Source of the DNA: a virus
Virus record (IMG/VR): IMGVR_UViG_3300008267_012882
Location: 1 to 26,951 of that record
Length of the DNA: 26,951 nt
Direction: 5' to 3' (one strand)
A program made the translations under genes and the position numbers. Below, piece by piece: positions 56 through 12,191 of the stretch (position 1 is its first letter; every line of letters begins with the position of its first letter). The notes beneath the pieces were generated by a model that saw only the letters and a list, made by a program, of their open reading frames with translations, was not told the origin of the DNA and ran no database searches.

Positions 56-1147
56 ATGGAAAAAAAATTATCAAATAAGACCGTTGTATCTGCTGACATT
101 ATATACGATATTCAGTATGGCGATTCTGGCAAAGGCAAGGTTTCTTCTTATCTTTCCTCACAATTGGGAAGATCTGCTTTGCTATTTGGATCAAAAAATA
201 AGCACTATAACTTTGTAGTTAGATGGGGCGGTGGTGCCAATGCTGGCCATACAGTCTATGTTGAAGGGAAGAAGTATAAGACACATATTATTCCATCTGG
301 TGTCTTTCATGGAATTAAATCTTTTATTGGCCCAGGTTGTGTAGTCAATCTTGAATCTTTAAAAGAAGAACTCTCTTATCTAAAGACCTCTGGATTTGAT
401 ACCTCCTTAGTAATGATCTCTCCTATGGCCCATATTGTCACAGAATCTCATATAGAGTCAGACAAGAAAGGCCTAGCTAAAAAGTGGGGTACAACTTCAA
501 GAGGTATTGCTCCCGCCTACTCCGATAAGTATGCTAGGGTTGGCATCAGGTTTGGCGATATTGCAGAAAATGATGATTTTTGGAAATCATTTTTATATAG
601 TGAGCCTCTATATGGGAATATCCTCTGTGAAGGGGCTCAGGGGTTTTATCTTGATATTAACTGGGGTAATTATCCATATGTCACAAGCAGCGAAACTCTG
701 CCATATGCTGCCTGCTCTGTAGGTTTCTCTCCAAAGAAAATTAGAAATATTTATGCTGTAGCTAAAATTTATGAAACAAGATCTGGTGAAGATCCTGATT
801 TTCCAGAAACACTATTTGATAATCCAGAGCTATCTAAGATAGGAGAGATTGGCAAAGAATATGGAGTTACTACTGGTCGTCGTCGCAAGGTTAACTATCT
901 AAATCTAGATCGTCTTATTTTTGCACTAAAAACTGGTGGCGGAAATAATTTAATTATCTCTAAATGCGATGTCTTGGAAGAATCCAAAATCTTTAAATTA
1001 TATCATAAAAATGAATTAGTATCTTTTGATTCATTGAAACTGATGAAGGATTATATTTCTGACCTAGTAGCAGAAGAGTGTAAGGAGGTAGAAAGAATCT
1101 ATTATTCTTCTTCACCAGAGGTAGTAGAAGGTCTTTTTATTGAATAG
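56..1147 (+). CDS. purA: Adenylosuccinate synthetase family protein (PurA; short phage/archaeal-length form)
   Basis: PurA joins IMP and L-aspartate using GTP to give adenylosuccinate, the first step from IMP to AMP. Visible family motifs are the P-loop-like GDSGKGK (22-28), NAGHT with the catalytic-type His65, GTTSRGI (145-151), EGAQG (192-196), PYVTSS (207-212), the aspartate-loop TTGRRR (272-277) and KCDV (303-306), whose Asp matches the guanine-reading Asp of PurA. At 363 residues it is shorter than bacterial PurA (about 430) and closer to archaeal and phage forms. The usual GDEGKG is GDSGKG here: the general-base Asp (Asp23) is kept but the next Glu is Ser. Phage PurZ (2-aminoadenine synthesis) typically, as I recall, loses that Asp, so PurA-type chemistry is more likely, though an ancestral PurZ-like enzyme is possible. 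GGAG at 47-50 supports the start. Confidence 0.9.
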   Translation: MEKKLSNKTVVSADIIYDIQYGDSGKGKVSSYLSSQLGRSALLFGSKNKHYNFVVRWGGGANAGHTVYVEGKKYKTHIIPSGVFHGIKSFIGPGCVVNLESLKEELSYLKTSGFDTSLVMISPMAHIVTESHIESDKKGLAKKWGTTSRGIAPAYSDKYARVGIRFGDIAENDDFWKSFLYSEPLYGNILCEGAQGFYLDINWGNYPYVTSSETLPYAACSVGFSPKKIRNIYAVAKIYETRSGEDPDFPETLFDNPELSKIGEIGKEYGVTTGRRRKVNYLNLDRLIFALKTGGGNNLIISKCDVLEESKIFKLYHKNELVSFDSLKLMKDYISDLVAEECKEVERIYYSSSPEVVEGLFIE

Positions 1148-4506: not shown

Positions 4507-5403
4507 GTGAGAGATTTTTCAAATATACCAACTTGTTTATCATTTGACGATATAATGATTGTCCCAACCTATTCGGAGGTTAAGAGTAGGTCTGAGCCCA
4601 TAACTAAGACCAGGGTTGGCTCTATTTCATTAGACCTGCCAATTGTATCATCGCCAATGGATACCGTAACTGAATATGAAATGGCAGTTGCAATTTCACG
4701 GGCTGGAGGTATGGGTCTTATTCATAGATTTATGTCTCCAAGAGATCAAGGCCTTATGCTAAGAAGAGCTTTCGATGAAATAGAGGAATCTATAGTTGGA
4801 GATCAAGATTTAACAAGAAATACCTTTGGAACCATTGGTGCTGCGATTGGCGTTGGTCAAGCAGAATTTGATAGACTTAAGACAATCATTGATATCTCTG
4901 GAGTGGATAGGTTTACTACCCTAGCAATAGATGTGGCCAATGGATTCTCCTCCTATATGAAAGATATGATAGAAATGGTCAGATCATCTTATGGAGACTC
5001 AATTAATATTATTGCTGGAAATATTGCTACCGGAGAAGGCTTTGACTTTCTCTCTAAGGCTGGGGCCAATGCAATTAGAGGGGGAATAGGTGGAGGTTGT
5101 TTTACACCAGGTACTAAGGTACTAACTAATAGTGGTTTAAAGCCAATAGAGGAAATCATTATTGGTGATATGGTTCTGACCCACACAGCCTCTTGGAAGC
5201 CTGTAGTAAATACACTTCAATTTGAGAGGGATGAAGAAATTGTAGTAATTAATGGTATTGAATCTACAAAAAATCACGAATATTATGTGGTTAAAAAATC
5301 AGATTCAAAATTAATTACTGAAGATAATATTCATCAATATGCGTTTTGGATTGAGGCAGACCATCTAGATGAAAGGGAGCATCTGCTAATAGAACTGGAC
5401 TAG
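4507..5403 (+). CDS. guaB: IMP dehydrogenase/GMP reductase family, N-terminal part fused to split-intein N half
   Basis: Residues 1-197 are the N-terminal part of an IMPDH/GMPR TIM barrel: FDDIMIVP (13-20), SPMDTVTE (49-56), GGMGLIHR (67-74), DVANG (142-146), AGNIATGEG (170-178) and the start of the phosphate/active-site loop, GGIGGG (192-197). The CBS (Bateman) domain usual in IMPDH is absent: the chain runs straight on after the HRFMS segment. Cys198 begins a 101-residue intein N half that ends at a TAG stop. The protein is therefore not functional alone and must be trans-spliced to the product starting at 6209. The start is GTG at 4507, 4 nt after AGGAGG (4497-4502). DVANG is more typical of GMP reductase, while MDTVTE and GGMGLIHR are more like IMPDH, so the reaction is not settled. 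Confidence 0.9.
   Translation: MRDFSNIPTCLSFDDIMIVPTYSEVKSRSEPITKTRVGSISLDLPIVSSPMDTVTEYEMAVAISRAGGMGLIHRFMSPRDQGLMLRRAFDEIEESIVGDQDLTRNTFGTIGAAIGVGQAEFDRLKTIIDISGVDRFTTLAIDVANGFSSYMKDMIEMVRSSYGDSINIIAGNIATGEGFDFLSKAGANAIRGGIGGGCFTPGTKVLTNSGLKPIEEIIIGDMVLTHTASWKPVVNTLQFERDEEIVVINGIESTKNHEYYVVKKSDSKLITEDNIHQYAFWIEADHLDEREHLLIELD
5098..5400 (+). other. Split intein, N-terminal half (IMPDH-1 type)
   Basis: It begins with the nucleophile Cys1 in CFTPGTKVLTNSG (block A), continues with PIEEIIIGD and holds a block B with KNHEYYVV, including the conserved His. It ends with LLIELD before a stop codon, with no endonuclease and no C-terminal splice motifs. The length (101 residues), sequence and insertion point match, from memory, the metagenomic IMPDH-1 split intein noted for very fast trans-splicing. 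Its partner is at 6209-6328. Confidence 0.92.
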
Positions 5404-5424
5404 TTACAAGGAGTGTCTAGTCCA

Positions 5425-6249
5425 ATGCCCAAAGATATTAGTGGTCAAAAAAATCCTTTCTATGGTAAGAGGCACAAGGAAGAGAGTAAGAGGAAAATGG
5501 GCGGAGCAGTTGTTGATTATAGTGGACCCAATAACCCATTTTATGGTAAAAAGCATAAAGAAGAAACTATAAATAGTATGAAGGAAAAGTTGAGTGAAAT
5601 TTTTTCTGGAGAAAAAAATCCATTTTATGGAAAGACTCATTCAATAGATTCAATTGAAAAGATTAAACAAAAAAATAAAGAATTTAGAGAAAATAATAAA
5701 GAAAAAATTTTAGAGGACAGGCTTAAAAGATTAGGAATAACAAAAGAAAAAATAGAAAATGCATTTATAGATTATTCTAATACAAGAAAAAATGCAGATG
5801 ATATTCAAAATGATTTAAGTATTGATAAAAGAGTTTTTTTTAAATATGTAGAAGAATTCAAAATTGCTTCAAAAGAAGAAATTCAAGCTATAAAAAACAA
5901 AAAAAGAATGAATAATTCTAAGTCCTCTCCAGAAGAAAAATTTTACAAATTATTTTGTAGTAAATATGGAGAAGAAAATGTTATATGGACTCATAAGATA
6001 AACTCATATTTTTATGACTTCTTTATATTTAAAACTCTTCTCGTAGAATATGATGGTTATTATTGGCACTCAATTCTTCAATCAAAAAATGACAAGGCTA
6101 AAGATGAATTAGCAAAAAATCTCAATATTCCACTTTATAGAATAAAAGAAAATGAAAATAGAAAGTGTGATTTTGAATTAGAAATGCAAAAAATAGAAGA
6201 GGTATTAAATGAAATTCAAATTAGTCGAAATAAAATCCAAAAATTATAA
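5425..6249 (+). CDS. Free-standing Vsr-like homing endonuclease with NUMOD3-type repeats, inside the fractured gene
   Basis: This 274-residue protein starts with three copies of a NUMOD3-like DNA-binding unit, NPFYGK followed by one residue and His (about 10-17, 37-44 and 65-72). A Lys-rich linker with a possible helix-turn-helix follows (about 100-150). The C-terminal nuclease domain (168-250) shows SSPEE, YDFF (Asp198), VEYDGYYWH (Glu208, Asp210, His215) and PLYRIKE, a restriction-enzyme-like fold of the Vsr/EDxHD kind. Such endonucleases are known between the halves of split-intein genes, where they spread the locus by cutting uninterrupted copies. I prefer the ATG at 5425 (AAGGAG at 5408-5413); a GTG at 5413 is in the same frame. 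The gene is much more AT- and Lys-rich than its flanks, as expected for a mobile insert. Its last 41 nt overlap the next gene. Confidence 0.85.
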   Translation: MPKDISGQKNPFYGKRHKEESKRKMGGAVVDYSGPNNPFYGKKHKEETINSMKEKLSEIFSGEKNPFYGKTHSIDSIEKIKQKNKEFRENNKEKILEDRLKRLGITKEKIENAFIDYSNTRKNADDIQNDLSIDKRVFFKYVEEFKIASKEEIQAIKNKKRMNNSKSSPEEKFYKLFCSKYGEENVIWTHKINSYFYDFFIFKTLLVEYDGYYWHSILQSKNDKAKDELAKNLNIPLYRIKENENRKCDFELEMQKIEEVLNEIQISRNKIQKL

Positions 6250-6328
6250 ACATTATACTGGAGTTGTTCATGATCTAACAGTAGAAGGTGATCATTCTTA
6301 CAATGTTAATAAAATTATAGTTCATAAC
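6209..6328 (+). other. Split intein, C-terminal half
   Basis: This 40-residue segment starts with its own ATG ([10 protein letters not shown]) and carries block F ([14 protein letters not shown], with the conserved Asp) and block G ending HN, followed by extein Ser at 6329. The penultimate His, terminal Asn and +1 Ser are all present, so splicing looks intact. The junction falls two residues before the catalytic Cys of the enzyme. Confidence 0.92.
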
Positions 6329-7870
6329 AGCATCTGTAAAACAAGAATTCAGACTGGAATTGGCGTACCCACTCTTTCTACTATTCTTGATTCTGCCAGA
6401 TGGAAAAACTCTAATTTAAATTCTCCATCATTAATTGCAGACGGAGGCATTAGGTATCCAGGTGACTTTGCCAAGAGCATTGTGGCAGGAGCAGATGCTG
6501 TAATGGTAGGTAGAATTTTAGCAGGATCTAATGAAACACCTGGAGAAATAATTGATGGATACAAGATCTATAGAGGTATGGCGTGTTACTCTTCTGATAC
6601 AGAGGTTTTAACATCAGGAGGATGGAAGCTTTTTTCTAGTCTAGATAAAGATGATAAAATTGCAACTCTAAATCAACAAACAAAGGATATAGAATATGAT
6701 CGGCCAATAAACTTATTTAGCTATAAGTATTCTGGTGATATGTATAGAGTTAACTCAAAATCTGTTGATATTTTAGTTACCCCAAATCATAATTTATATA
6801 TTGGGAAAAAGAGTAGCTGTAGAGATACAAACTACTCTCTCATTAGAGCTGATGAGGCTTATTCATCTGACAATAAATATCAGAACTATAATTATAGGCT
6901 GCATGGTAATTGGATAGCAAATAGAGAAGATACTTTTGCCATTCCAGATTCAAATATAATTTTTGAAATGGATAAGTGGTTAGATTTTTATGGATTCTGG
7001 CTGGCAGAAGGATGCACCTATCAGTATATTCAGAAGGGCAAATATATCTGTAATGTTATATCTATATCAAATAATGATTCCAATCTAATTGAAAGATACA
7101 AGAATATTCTGGCAGAGGTTGGAATCAGATCTTCTATAAGATCTAGAAAGATAAAGTCTGGAAAGATAAATTACGAATTAAAAGCACATAATAAACATTT
7201 GTTTAATTATTTGGCAAAATTTGGAAAGGCAAAAGATAAGTTTATTTCAGAAGAATTTAAGATGTTATCTTCTGATCAATTAAACATTATTATTGATTCG
7301 ATATTTCTTGGTGATGGATCTAGATCAAGGGGTTCTATTACAACTATTTCCAAGAGACTTGCAGATGATATTTCTGAGTTGTGCATAAAGACAAAGAGAA
7401 ATGGCAAAATTCAGCTAGTAAGAAAAGGTGGTACTAGTTACAAACAATTTAATCATAACCATGATCTTTATAATGTTTCTGTAATAAAAGACTCAATAGT
7501 TGAGACTTTTGTACATTCTAAGAATGTTTCAGTGGAAAGTTATGATGGAGAGGTCTATTGTGCAGAGGTTGGTAATAGCGTTCTTTGTGTTAGAAGGAAT
7601 GGCAAGTTTGTTTGGTGTGGAAACTCAAAAGAGGTACAATCAGATAGAAGAGGTGGTTTGAAGCCAGGAACTTGTGCAGAGGGTGTTTCTACATTAATTA
7701 AGTGTACAGGTCCTGTATCAGATACTCTTCAAGAGTTTCGTGGAGGTCTAGTATCTTCCATGACTTATCTCAATGCTAGAACCATTGAAGAATATAGAAT
7801 GAATGCAAAGCTAATCAGAATTACTGCAGCTGGTATGGATGAATCTCATGCTTTTGGAACAAAGAAATGA
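6209..7870 (+). CDS. guaB: Split-intein C half, IMPDH/GMPR C-terminal part, and an in-frame LAGLIDADG intein
   Basis: Residues 1-40 are the intein C half. Residues 41-125 continue the enzyme from Ser41: [10 protein letters not shown] with the catalytic Cys43, then [19 protein letters not shown] and YRGMA. Residues 126-472 are a second, continuous intein. Residues 473-553 finish the enzyme with [26 protein letters not shown] and [10 protein letters not shown]. Joining the exteins gives 197+85+81 = 363 residues, the size of an IMPDH/GMPR without CBS domains. The ESH near the C-terminus resembles IMPDH. The flap between YRGMA and AEG is short (about 20 residues) and lacks the Arg-Tyr pair of IMPDH, resembling GMP reductase or the GuaB1 type. 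The ATG at 6209 follows AGAGG near 6198-6202. Confidence 0.9.
6584..7624 (+). mobile_element. Continuous LAGLIDADG-type intein in the IMPDH/GMPR C-terminal part
   Basis: This is a 347-residue insert between YRGMA and SKEV of the host enzyme. Block A is [15 protein letters not shown] with Cys1; block B is VTPNHNLYI. The two endonuclease motifs are YGFWLAEG and DSIFLGDG, each keeping its catalytic acidic residue, so the homing endonuclease may be active. Block F is VYCAEV with Cys in the usual Asp position, and the C-terminus is VWCGN before Ser, with Gly instead of the usual penultimate His. I recall this pair of variations from other phage inteins (VRRNGK followed by GN), so splicing is still likely. 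Confidence 0.9.
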
Positions 7871-8495: not shown

Positions 8496-8600
8496 TCCAT
8501 CTTCTTCCCAGCTTATACTGTCGGCGTGAGGGAAGTCGCCCTTGCGAGAGTCGAAAAACCCTGCAAAAAACGAAAGTCAAAAACAAAAGAGGTTGTAATT
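8496..8600 (+). promoter_or_regulatory. Probable promoter and leader of the MoxR-type ATPase gene
   Basis: This non-coding stretch has a TATACT (8514-8519) that could be a -10 box, but the -35 region 17 nt upstream is poor. After it comes a GC-richer segment with possible short hairpins (GGCG with CGCC, or AGGG with CCCT, between about 8522 and 8545) and then an A-rich run to the ribosome site AAAGAGG (about 8586-8592). A GTG-started extension of the ATPase frame through this region (from 8526) has low-complexity Lys-rich coding and is less likely than the ATG at 8601. Confidence 0.4.
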
Positions 8601-9674
8601 ATGAATATTGTTCAGACTAAGGAAACACTAAAGACGATGCCAAACGATAAGTCCATCATGCTTCATGCAAAGCATGGTGTGGGCAAGTCCAGCGTAGTTA
8701 AGCAGGTAGCCAAGGAGCTTACCCAGGAGAGTGGAGAGACTTACGGCTTTTGGGACGTTCGCCTCTCTCAATGTGAGGTTGGTGATATCAAGGGTATGCC
8801 ACAGGTAGATACTTCTGCCGGTATCACCCGCTTTCTTAAGCAGGAGTGGTGGCCTCGTGACCCTAACAGCAAGGGTATTCTCTTCTTCGATGAGTTGAAT
8901 CGTGCTTCCAAGGACGTTCTCCAGGCTGTTTTCGAGATTTGTCTCGACCGCAGACTTGACGGTGAAAAGCTCCCTGACGGCTGGCGTGTTGTAGCCGCAG
9001 TTAACTCGGATTCTGACTATGATGTGGTGGAGCTGGACCCCGCGCTCCATGACCGCTGGTTTCATATCGACTTTGACCCGTCTGTGAGCGAGTGGGTTTC
9101 TTGGGCAAGAACACAGTCTATTCATCCAGCAGTAGTTGAATTCGTTGACCGTAATCAGAACCTTCTGGACCCACCTGTGGGCAATCTGGAGGCGGGTAAG
9201 GTCTACCCCTCTCGTCGTTCTTGGCAGGCTTTCTCCGATTCTCTGATTGCTATGAAGCTGGAAGAGAGGGATGATGGTATGCTAACTCAGGTGGCGAAAG
9301 GCTGGCTCGGTCGAGAGATTTCTGTAATGTTCCAGAAGTTCATTACAAACGAGTTCTCTCTTCTTCGTCCAGAAGATGTTATTGACTCTCTGGAGAAGGT
9401 CAAGCCAAAGGTAGAGTCCTCCTGTAATGACATTGAGGTTATCGCCGCCCTTGCTCGCTCGGTAGTGGCAGAGGTTAACAATCGCTCTCTGACCAAGATG
9501 AAGGACAAGCAGAGGGACAATCTTCGTGAGTTCTTCATGATGCTTCCTAATGACGTTGCTTCTCAGGCTTGGGTAGCACTACTTGGCGGAGAGAAGAGCA
9601 AGAAGATTGTGATGGATTGGCAGTCTGACGATAAGTTCCGTGAGCATCTTCGTAAGATTTACCTTTCCAACTAG
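8601..9674 (+). CDS. MoxR-type AAA+ ATPase
   Basis: This is a 357-residue AAA+ ATPase of the MoxR kind, chaperone-like enzymes that remodel or insert cofactors into partner complexes, usually together with VWA-domain proteins. Walker A is HAKHGVGKSS (22-31), Walker B is ILFFDELNRA (93-102), and sensor 1 is AAVNSD (132-137). The FFDELNRA form is typical of MoxR/RavA-like proteins. The ATG at 8601 has AAAGAGG about 8 nt upstream. The gene uses many CGT/CGC Arg and CTC/CTT Leu codons and is less AT-rich than its neighbours, which prefer AGA. That may reflect high expression or separate origin. The VWA protein encoded at 9797 is its likely partner. Confidence 0.88.
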   Translation: MNIVQTKETLKTMPNDKSIMLHAKHGVGKSSVVKQVAKELTQESGETYGFWDVRLSQCEVGDIKGMPQVDTSAGITRFLKQEWWPRDPNSKGILFFDELNRASKDVLQAVFEICLDRRLDGEKLPDGWRVVAAVNSDSDYDVVELDPALHDRWFHIDFDPSVSEWVSWARTQSIHPAVVEFVDRNQNLLDPPVGNLEAGKVYPSRRSWQAFSDSLIAMKLEERDDGMLTQVAKGWLGREISVMFQKFITNEFSLLRPEDVIDSLEKVKPKVESSCNDIEVIAALARSVVAEVNNRSLTKMKDKQRDNLREFFMMLPNDVASQAWVALLGGEKSKKIVMDWQSDDKFREHLRKIYLSN

Positions 9675-9796: not shown

Positions 9797-10936
9797 ATGG
9801 ATCGTGCAACCCGCGATAAGCTAGAGTCTGGAATCAGCAAACTCATTACTTTTCAGCCGCTTTATGGAGAGGTATTTCTTCATCTAAACAAGATTGAGCG
9901 AAAGGACATGCCTACAATGGCAGTAGGAGTCATTCGTAGAGTAGACCTGGCTCTTTACTATAATCCAGACTTTGTAAACAAGCTCTCTCCGACAGAGCTT
10001 CGTGGGGTACTAAAGCATGAGGCTTTGCACATCCTTCTTCATCACTTGACTCGCGCAAAGCATTTTGCCTATAATCCAAGGGGCTATAATATTGCGGCAG
10101 ATATGGCTATCAACTGCCATATTGAGGGTCTGCCGGAAGGTGCTATGTATCCAAAGACCTTCAATCTTGAAGATAATCAGTCGTCTGAATTTTACTATGA
10201 GAAGCTAAAGAAGGAGGCTGAAAATCAGAAGAAAGAAATTGGAGAGTTTGCAGAAGGTCTAGGTGATACCGTAGACGACCATTCTCTTTGGGATGAGTTT
10301 GATGATGATATTGTAGAAGAGAAGATTCGCAATATCGCTGATAAAGCTATCAAGGAGCAAGAGAAGAAGGGATGGGGCTCTATTGATGGTAAGCTGGCTC
10401 AGCAGATTATTGCAGCTAACAAGCCTGTAGTTAACTGGAAGAAGGAGGTGCGTTGGTTTATCAATAAGCTAGTCCTAATGGGTAGACTCAATACCCGTAT
10501 GCGCCCTAATCGTCGCTATGGCTTTCAGTCTCCCGGCTCTAAGAGGGACTATACCAGTCGTTTGCTAGTAGCCTTTGATACTTCCGGCTCTGTTTCTGAC
10601 AAGCAGTTGGAACACTTTGCCACAGAACTCAATGGTATGATTGACCACGTTGAGTGCGATTTTGTCCAGTTTGACTGGGTTGTTCATGGAGAGCCAAAGC
10701 CTTTCTCTAAGAAGGCTGGCAAGGTTAATATTGTTGGCAGGGGTGGTACTAACTTTGCTCCAGTTATTGAGTTGGCAGACAACCTTAACTACGATGGTCT
10801 AGTCATCTTTACGGACGGTTATGCTCCATTTCCACCTAAGCCAAAGACTCGCATGTTGTGGGCCGTCTGTGAGCAGGACCGTGGTGTAGAGTTTCCATAC
10901 GGAAAGAAAGTTGTAATTGAGCAGAAAAAGAACTGA
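9797..10936 (+). CDS. DUF2201-like protein: putative metallopeptidase domain plus VWA-like domain
   Basis: This 379-residue protein has two parts. The N-terminal part has KHEALHILLHH (73-83), an HExxH zinc-site pattern, followed by AADMAINCHI, as in the metallopeptidase-like half of the DUF2201 family. A charged, helical linker (about 130-205) leads to a VWA-like domain with the MIDAS-type DTSGSVS (261-267), GRGGTNF and FTDGYAPF. Proteins of this architecture usually lie next to MoxR-type ATPases, as here, and are thought to act as a remodelling pair in the cytoplasm; the substrate is unknown. AGGGAG stands 5 nt before the ATG. Arg codons CGT/CGC are common, as in the ATPase gene. It is followed by its own terminator. 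Confidence 0.85.
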   Translation: MDRATRDKLESGISKLITFQPLYGEVFLHLNKIERKDMPTMAVGVIRRVDLALYYNPDFVNKLSPTELRGVLKHEALHILLHHLTRAKHFAYNPRGYNIAADMAINCHIEGLPEGAMYPKTFNLEDNQSSEFYYEKLKKEAENQKKEIGEFAEGLGDTVDDHSLWDEFDDDIVEEKIRNIADKAIKEQEKKGWGSIDGKLAQQIIAANKPVVNWKKEVRWFINKLVLMGRLNTRMRPNRRYGFQSPGSKRDYTSRLLVAFDTSGSVSDKQLEHFATELNGMIDHVECDFVQFDWVVHGEPKPFSKKAGKVNIVGRGGTNFAPVIELADNLNYDGLVIFTDGYAPFPPKPKTRMLWAVCEQDRGVEFPYGKKVVIEQKKN

Positions 10937-11000: not shown

Positions 11001-12191
11001 ATGATTCATTCTTTCACTAAGACACATAGTAGACTTTCAACCATTATTGTTGCCTTTGATGCAGGTTCAAGGTCAGAGGGCAAGAAATTTAACCCAGGTA
11101 TTGCCCATATGTTGGAGCATTGTATCTTTAAGGGTACAGAAAAAAGAGACTGGCAGAGCATCAATAGAGAGATTGCCTTTCTTGGTGGTAATGTTAATGC
11201 TTTTACTAGTCATGAAATGGTACAGTATTATATTTCTGTTCCAATAGAGAATCTAGATTCATGCATGGAGATTCTCTCTGATATGGTCTTTAATTCCACC
11301 TTTCCAGAGGAAGAATTTTTGAAGGAAAAGGAAGTAGTTAAGGAAGAGGAAGTCTCTAGAAATGATAGTCCAGAGGCTTATATCTGGAAGAATTTCTCAG
11401 AAAACTTCTTCTCTAATTATCTTGGAACTCCAGTCATTGGCACTCAGGAGTCTATCTCTAGATTTACAAGAGATGAAGTTGCTGCTTTTCATCAAAAGTT
11501 CTGTAAGAGAGAAGCTGCCGTAGTTTCTCTATGTTCAAATATGTCTAAGGCCGAAGCAAAGCTGCTTATGACTAAGCATTTTGGCAAGGCATCTGGCAGA
11601 ATTGCTGGCAGAAAGTCTTATGAGGGAACCTCATATAAAGACTCTAAGCTACTAGAAATTACAAAGGCTGGTATTGAGCATAGTTACGTCTATATGGGTA
11701 TGCCAAGCACAAGCACCCCTGGAGTAAAAGACCCTACTACTTCAGTAATGAACACCATTCTATCTGGCGGAATGGATGCAAGACTCTTTACAGAGATTAG
11801 GGAAAAGAGAGGTCTAGTTTATGGCATTTCTGCCGGCTCTATTTCCTGGCAGGGAGGAGGATCTTATATTGTTGATTTCTCGACTAGAGATAAGAATGTA
11901 GAAGAAGCTCTTTCTGTTACTAGGGAAGAGTTAGTTAGAATGGCAAATGTAAATGTAACAGATGAAGAGTTGCAGAGGGCCAAGAATAAGCTGCGCTCTA
12001 GCTTTTATGCTGCCAACGAGTCTAGCTCTAGTCTGGCCAATTGGTCGGTCAAGCAAGCTCTCTTTGGCGAGCTATCCATCGGTGATTATATTAATAGGGT
12101 GGAGGCTGTAAGCGCGGAACAGGTTAGGGAGCTTGCCGCTGAAACCTTTAATCTAGATAAGATGCTAACAGTTATCTGCAGAAAGGAGTGA
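11001..12191 (+). CDS. M16 family zinc metallopeptidase
   Basis: This is a 396-residue single-unit peptidase of the pitrilysin/processing-peptidase family. It has the inverted zinc motif HMLEH (36-40, HxxEH) and a run of Glu residues about 76 positions later (115-117, in VVKEEEVSRND) that supplies the third ligand. The C-terminal half has the non-catalytic M16 fold with the RGLVY substrate-binding motif near 273. Such enzymes cut unfolded peptides or leader sequences, often as dimers; a phage role in prohead or peptide processing is possible but unproved. There is no signal peptide, so it is probably cytoplasmic. AGGGGA (10991-10996) stands 4 nt before the ATG, right after a terminator, so a promoter may lie in or before that region. 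Confidence 0.9.
   Translation: MIHSFTKTHSRLSTIIVAFDAGSRSEGKKFNPGIAHMLEHCIFKGTEKRDWQSINREIAFLGGNVNAFTSHEMVQYYISVPIENLDSCMEILSDMVFNSTFPEEEFLKEKEVVKEEEVSRNDSPEAYIWKNFSENFFSNYLGTPVIGTQESISRFTRDEVAAFHQKFCKREAAVVSLCSNMSKAEAKLLMTKHFGKASGRIAGRKSYEGTSYKDSKLLEITKAGIEHSYVYMGMPSTSTPGVKDPTTSVMNTILSGGMDARLFTEIREKRGLVYGISAGSISWQGGGSYIVDFSTRDKNVEEALSVTREELVRMANVNVTDEELQRAKNKLRSSFYAANESSSSLANWSVKQALFGELSIGDYINRVEAVSAEQVRELAAETFNLDKMLTVICRKE

What the first reader, a model, noticed from the sequence alone, without database searches (positions are those of the whole stretch)
4507..7870. Fractured IMPDH/GMPR gene: split intein halves flanking a Vsr-like homing endonuclease
The enzyme gene is cut into two separate reading frames. 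The first ends in a 101-residue intein N half with a stop codon. A 274-residue Vsr-like endonuclease gene follows, then a second frame opens with a 40-residue intein C half. Block A Cys1, block B His, block F Asp, terminal His-Asn and +1 Ser are all present, so the two proteins should be joined by trans-splicing just before the catalytic Cys. This matches the 'fractured gene' class described from marine metagenomes and the fast IMPDH-1 split intein, here seen with its full phage context. The class itself is known.
Basis: partly seen in the sequence, partly recalled or inferred. Interest (0 to 1): 0.85.

Follow-up and report, generated by a model that had tools for sequence, protein, structure and literature searches.

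The report
Phage gene broken by split intein

Summary
An IMPDH/GMPR-family gene is split into a precursor ending in a 101-aa intein N half (4507-5403) and one opening with a 40-aa intein C half (6209-7870), with a NUMOD3/EDxHD (Vsr-like) endonuclease gene between them (5425-6249). It belongs to the known 'fractured gene' class and is a homolog of the IMPDH-1 split intein. Removing both inteins gives a 363-aa enzyme; intact relatives are 358-370 aa. None of the other phage IMPDH/GMPR loci read here has an intein at the second site.

At the first site, IMG/VR yields 29 distinct inteins including this one: 18 split with a nuclease, 9 split without (5 keep nuclease remnants) and 2 fused. At least 55 distinct empty genes also exist, and two more have a free-standing nuclease beside them. 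Trees, conflict between host-gene and intein phylogeny, and one DNA-identity profile indicate repeated movement, nuclease loss and one probable re-fusion. The locus is a new member of a known kind. Splicing and cleavage activity are inferred, not shown.

The parts
4507..5097 (+). N-extein of IMPDH/GMPR-family enzyme (197 aa)
   Evidence: Pfam PF00478 E 8e-43; junction ...GGIGGG| matches uninterrupted relatives
5098..5403 (+). Split intein N half (101 aa, CFTPGTKV...LLIELD) and TAG stop
   Evidence: Hint_2 above cutoff, intein_Nterm below cutoff; 54-68% identical to IN of other IMPDH inteins in its clade
5396..5424 (+). Inverted repeat TGGACTAG/CTAGTCCA; the AAGGAG Shine-Dalgarno-like site (5408-5413) lies in its loop, just before the endonuclease ATG; its 5' arm contains the IN stop codon
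   Evidence: fold -16.2 kcal/mol, z -1.98 for the 62-nt segment, but z -0.77 for a 90-nt segment; found elsewhere only in the contigs of L118/L121
5425..6249 (+). Free-standing homing endonuclease gene, 274 aa, three NUMOD3 motifs and a C-terminal EDxHD/Vsr-like nuclease domain
   Evidence: NUMOD3 E 5e-22; catalytic E170, D198, H215, D223 conserved in all 20 relatives aligned; structure match 3r3p; GC 25% against 36% for the window
6209..6328 (+). Split intein C half (40 aa, MKFKLVEI...IIVHN), overlapping the endonuclease frame by 41 nt
   Evidence: intein_Cterm above cutoff; 57-80% identical to IC of other IMPDH inteins in its clade
6329..6583 (+). C-extein part 1 (85 aa, starts S-I-C with the catalytic Cys at +3)
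   Evidence: PF00478
6584..7624 (+). Second, contiguous intein with LAGLIDADG endonuclease (347 aa, CYSSDTEVL...VWCGN), at GMA|SKEV
   Evidence: LAGLIDADG_3 E 7e-11 above cutoff, intein_Nterm above cutoff; Prevotella phage Lak-A1 intein aligns end to end, 28.7%, E 2e-32; site empty in syntenic relatives
7625..7870 (+). C-extein part 2 (81 aa) and stop
   Evidence: PF00478 match 7637-7852

Best explanation
The locus is a fractured phage IMPDH/GMPR gene with two mobile inteins. Two precursors are translated separately. IN and IC associate, fold into one HINT domain and trans-splice, joining GGG to SIC just before the catalytic Cys. Independently, the LAGLIDADG intein in the C precursor excises itself in cis and joins GMA to SKEV. 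The product is one 363-aa enzyme chain. The EDxHD (Vsr-like) endonuclease made from the gene between the intein halves cuts intein-less copies of the gene at or near site 1 in co-infecting phages, and recombination copies the whole cassette in; the LAGLIDADG intein does the same at site 2. Shown: gene structure, motifs, recurrence at one codon, mobility of site-1 inteins between lineages, nuclease loss. Inferred: splicing, cleavage, target sites, phenotype.
For: Reading frames and motifs. Removing both inteins gives 363 aa; intact relatives are 358 and 370 aa. Both sites are uninterrupted in syntenic relatives. A contiguous relative (L114 intein, 68% and 80% identical in IN and IC) is modelled at pLDDT 95.8 and matches gp41-1 (6qaz) and NrdJ-1 (8ubs) inteins in the PDB. 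Endonuclease model matches I-Bth0305I, E 0.009, prob 0.99; EDxHD residues conserved in all 20 aligned. 27 of 29 inteins at site 1 are split and 18 carry a NUMOD3/Vsr-like gene in the gap. Intein presence needs at least 12 changes on the extein tree. Extein data reject the clade of 13 inteins, p 3.6e-5. L018 and L019 are 98-100% identical across the intein and about 60-75% a few hundred bp away. Purifying selection on IN, endonuclease and IC, dN/dS 0.03-0.28 (dS high in some pairs).
Against: No splicing or cleavage assay exists for this copy. The second intein has Gly instead of His before its terminal Asn, though its Lak-A1 relative has the same CGN|S end. The endonuclease structure match covers the catalytic domain only and is weak in overall TM-score. 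The conversion-like identity profile is from one pair of contigs. IMPDH and GMPR cannot be told apart for this extein: the closest intact relatives score well below the equivalog cutoffs.
Confidence: 0.88

Rival explanations
1. The insert is a group I or group II intron that carries the endonuclease, removed from RNA rather than protein.
For: NUMOD3 and EDxHD endonucleases also live in group I introns; the endonuclease also matches the group I intron endonuclease family below cutoff.
Against: No Rfam match anywhere in the window. Both flanks of the endonuclease gene encode in-frame intein halves with intact splicing motifs under purifying selection. Two relatives carry the same halves as one continuous intein.
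Confidence: 0.02
2. The gene is decaying: the halves no longer splice and the enzyme is lost.
For: Two insertions in one gene and a GTG start; no close copy of this exact double arrangement was found.
Against: All splicing residues are intact in both inteins, no frameshift in extein or inteins, intein/extein dN/dS 0.19-0.35 against L118 (dS near saturation), and the spliced length equals that of intact relatives.
Confidence: 0.06
3. The endonuclease is not the mobility factor of this split intein but an independent free-standing gene that settled in the gap, targeting another site.
For: Relatives sit free-standing beside intact IMPDH genes (L007 upstream, L014 downstream), and nine split inteins persist without it.
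Against: All the full-length endonuclease relatives I examined lie in or beside this gene; two endonuclease subfamilies occupy the same gap; its loss leaves remnants at the same place.
Confidence: 0.15

Closest known systems
Fractured genes with split inteins and Vsr-like homing endonucleases (Dassa et al. 2009, NAR 37:2560, doi 10.1093/nar/gkp095; not held, known from memory and citations in PMC7090010, PMC12350094, PMC10448857)
   Same: Enzyme gene broken by a split intein with a free-standing Vsr-related endonuclease gene between the halves; phage-borne
   Different: This copy has a second, contiguous LAGLIDADG intein in the same enzyme
IMPDH-1 split intein (Carvajal-Vallejos et al. 2012; among the fastest in PMC7090010)
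   Same: Same host-gene family, same codon (GGG|SIC), same split position (101 + 40 aa), homologous halves
   Different: About 57% identical in IN; splicing rate of this one unknown
I-Bth0305I, EDxHD homing endonuclease family (PDB 3r3p; PMC3943268)
   Same: EDxHD catalytic domain, multi-domain phage enzyme with modular DNA-binding parts
   Different: I-Bth0305I is intron-encoded; this one has three NUMOD3 motifs and lies between intein halves
Trichodesmium erythraeum dnaE (Liu and Yang 2003, title cited in PMC5874633)
   Same: One protein assembled with both a split intein and contiguous inteins (from memory)
   Different: Cellular dnaE, no endonuclease gene between the halves (from memory)
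[quoted passage not shown]
   Same: Two inteins with separate endonucleases close together in one gene
   Different: Both contiguous and archaeal; there co-homing into an empty gene was inefficient

Membership tests
Fractured gene class | Conserved enzyme broken into two frames by intein halves | tested here: met
Fractured gene class | Free-standing endonuclease gene between the halves | tested here: met
   ORF 5425-6249, own start and SD-like site; NUMOD3
Fractured gene class | Vsr-related endonuclease (found in about half of the described loci, from memory) | tested here: met
   EDxHD residues, 3r3p match; a sister-type endonuclease (L056) hits Pfam Vsr, E 0.001, below cutoff
Fractured gene class | Trans-splicing of the two products | not testable with these tools
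   motifs intact; activity shown in the literature for IMPDH-1 (PMC7090010)
IMPDH-1 split intein family | Same insertion codon, same split point, sequence homology | tested here: met
   IMPDH-1 letters were recalled, then matched 95% in L018/L019
EDxHD homing endonuclease | Conserved E, D, H, D catalytic residues in a PD-(D/E)xK-like fold | tested here: met
   all 20 sequences aligned; model pLDDT 76.7, E 0.009 to 3r3p
EDxHD homing endonuclease | Site-specific cleavage of the intein-less allele | not testable with these tools
   needs protein
Class 1 LAGLIDADG intein (site 2) | Cys1, block B TxxH, two LAGLIDADG motifs, terminal Asn, +1 Ser | tested here: met
   TPNH, FWLAEG and FLGDG, CGN|S
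Class 1 LAGLIDADG intein (site 2) | Penultimate His (common, not universal) | tested here: not met
   Gly, as in the Lak-A1 relative
Group I/II intron | Recognisable intron RNA structure | tested here: not met
   no Rfam match
IMP dehydrogenase versus GMP reductase | Score over the curated equivalog cutoff | tested here: inconclusive
   syntenic intact relatives reach 257-267 of 481.5 bits for IMPDH and about 200 of 397 for GMPR

The most novel reading that the evidence does not exclude
At this one codon the fractured state is a reversible phase of a homing cycle. Free-standing Vsr-like endonucleases next to intein-less IMPDH genes (L007, L014) cut the intein site and came to home together with the split intein (collaborative homing); the endonuclease is then repeatedly deleted while the split persists (nine loci, five with remnants), and the halves can re-fuse into one contiguous mini-intein (L114). 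In the window phage a second, LAGLIDADG intein has been added to the same cycle.
Probability: 0.3. Interest if true: 0.72.

Novelty: new member of a known kind. Interest (0 to 1): 0.5.

Why it matters
The locus itself adds one member to a known class, with the uncommon feature that one enzyme needs both a trans- and a cis-splicing intein. Its relatives matter more: one codon in one phage gene exists empty, empty with a neighbouring endonuclease, split with either of two endonuclease subfamilies, split with endonuclease remnants, split with none, and fused. That makes two open questions directly testable: how collaborative homing arrangements arise (called unclear in PMC10448857), and whether split inteins are a one-way product of endonuclease insertion. 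It also gives about 27 natural split inteins related to one of the fastest known, plus two natural fused versions.

Tried and rejected
Intron explanation: Rfam gave nothing. Assembly artefact: rejected by recurrence and clean empty sites. Cellular copies: a scan of genome contigs found no IMPDH split intein, only short or distant Hint-type matches. Isolated phages: INPHARED holds IMPDH genes but none with this split intein. Relatives of the second intein in IMG/VR by single-sequence patterns: none. Aligning IN and IC together with the fused intein failed, because MAFFT placed IC under the wrong columns; the model was built from an alignment of IN rows and the two fused inteins. The endonuclease hairpin as a general feature is only suggestive: endonuclease-bearing loci fold somewhat better than endonuclease-less ones (median z -1.8 against 0.3, p 0.02, not corrected for kinship). 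The window's own z is -0.77 over 90 nt. The AU test on {L004, L115, L159} was not significant (p 0.15). The founding papers (Dassa 2009, Carvajal-Vallejos 2012) are not held, so statements about them rest on memory and on citing papers.

Full report
Observation. The window is one IMG/VR virus record of 26,951 bases, linear. The three frames exist as described. The first, GTG 4507 to TAG 5403, is an IMPDH/GMPR-family N-extein of 197 aa followed by a 101-aa intein N half. The second is a 274-aa endonuclease gene from ATG 5425 behind AAGGAG. The third, ATG 6209 to 7870, opens with a 40-aa intein C half and overlaps the endonuclease by 41 nt. Pfam, NCBIfam and motif evidence agree.

Residues 126-472 of the C precursor (6584-7624, 347 aa) are a second, contiguous intein with an LAGLIDADG endonuclease domain. 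LAGLIDADG_3 and intein_Nterm are both over their curated cutoffs. An intein in Prevotella phage Lak-A1 aligns to it end to end (28.7%, E 2e-32) and shares the unusual CGN|S end. Syntenic relatives read straight through both sites. Removing both inteins leaves 363 aa; the intact relatives L203 and L175 have 358 and 370 aa. Every other C-extein read here is 140-186 aa, so none has an insert at site 2.

Nature of the split intein. A recalled sequence of the N half of the IMPDH-1 split intein matched phage contigs L018 and L019 at 95%. The window's IN is 56-57% and its IC 70-72% identical to theirs. A natural contiguous relative, the 143-aa L114 intein, was modelled at pLDDT 95.8 from an alignment of 26 sequences. 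Its PDB matches are HINT domains, among them gp41-1 (6qaz, E 2e-7) and NrdJ-1 (8ubs, E 1e-6).

Nature of the endonuclease. It has three NUMOD3 motifs and a C-terminal domain whose E170, D198, H215 and D223 are kept in all 20 relatives aligned. The model (pLDDT 76.7) finds the EDxHD enzyme I-Bth0305I first, E 0.009, probability 0.99. Two subfamilies, each with full support, occur at this site: type A (EYDGYYWH, as here) and type B (EV.GDYWHGNP). A type-B member, L056, hits Pfam Vsr weakly.

One site, many states. Profile searches of IMG/VR and junction analysis gave 29 distinct inteins at GGG|S(I/L/V)C, the window included. Ten are split with a type-A endonuclease, eight split with type B, nine split without an endonuclease, and two fused. 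At least 55 distinct genes are intact. L007 and L014 are intact with a type-A endonuclease as the next gene. In five endonuclease-less loci (L018, L119, L122, L134, L138) the gap still holds the C-terminal end of an endonuclease (blastx E 3e-7 to 3e-21), which gives the direction: loss. L114 is fused, is the sister of the window intein (99/93) inside a starred clade of 13 whose other members are split, and still carries the internal MKFKL that starts IC elsewhere. Re-fusion is therefore more likely than repeated splitting at the same point; it rests on one contig.

Mobility. On the extein tree the intein's presence needs at least 12 changes, with intein-bearing and empty genes as close sisters: L004 and L194, L115 and L214, L114 and L203, L006 and L007. 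The extein data reject the 13-intein clade (AU p 3.6e-5), and the intein data reject the extein pair L123 + L130 (p 0.005). L018 and L019 are 98-100% identical across the intein, falling to about 60-75% within a few hundred bases upstream and beyond the C-extein downstream, as expected after homing with co-conversion (one pair). The hosts of the intein include genes related to true GMP reductase: L056 and L139 are sisters of L022, which is over the GMPR cutoff.

Regulation. An 8-bp inverted repeat (5396-5424) puts the endonuclease's Shine-Dalgarno-like site in its loop and the IN stop codon in its 5' arm. It is otherwise found only in the contigs of L118 and L121. Differently spelled hairpins stand at the same place in L004, L019-L021 and L038. 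A role in coupling or damping endonuclease translation is a guess; the statistics are weak.

Mechanism. Most likely both precursors are made, trans-spliced at site 1 and cis-spliced at site 2, so that the loop before the catalytic Cys and the GMA|SKEV loop are restored. The endonucleases drive spread into empty alleles. Neither step was tested on this copy. With two inteins 255 extein bases apart, co-homing into an empty gene may be inefficient, as shown for haloarchaeal MCM inteins (PMC10643990).

Novelty. The class (Dassa 2009) and this very intein family (IMPDH-1) are known; a split intein plus contiguous inteins in one protein has a precedent in Trichodesmium dnaE. This locus is a new member with an unusual combination. 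The wider series at one codon is the part a specialist would want, and I found no description of it in the papers held; the two founding papers could not be read.

Noticed in passing
L048:4385-7524: The gap between the intein halves holds, besides a type-B endonuclease, a type II DNA methyltransferase gene (6383-7405, PADLOC E 6e-82) and an unassigned 231-aa ORF (5691-6386): possibly a restriction-modification pair carried as cargo inside a split intein.
   Followed up: partly
window 56-1147: Adenylosuccinate-synthetase-like gene with YGDSGKGK in place of GDEGKGK; its only PHROG match is annotated '2-aminooxy adenylosuccinate synthetase', but it is far below the NCBIfam PurZ cutoff. A homolog lies near the IMPDH gene in 26 of the loci fetched, which may point to a modified-purine nucleotide pathway.
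   Followed up: partly
L006 and L007: Related phages (77% DNA identity in flanks): in L006 the endonuclease lies inside the split intein, in L007 a sister endonuclease (95/95) lies directly upstream of an intact IMPDH gene and overlaps its start.
   Followed up: partly
L022:3563-4645 and L056, L139: L022 is an intact gene over the GMP reductase cutoff (469 bits against 397); its sisters L056 and L139 carry the split intein at the homologous codon, so the intein occurs in both GMPR and IMPDH-type genes.
   Followed up: partly
window 9797-10936 and 8526-9674: VWA/DUF2201 and AAA_5 ATPase genes, next to an M16 peptidase gene (11001-12191), form a block conserved with PurA/Z, DHH and IMPDH in relatives L175, L165, L203, L163, L201, L114.
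   Followed up: no
window 5425-6249: The endonuclease gene has 25% GC (GC3 16%) against 36% for the window.
   Followed up: no
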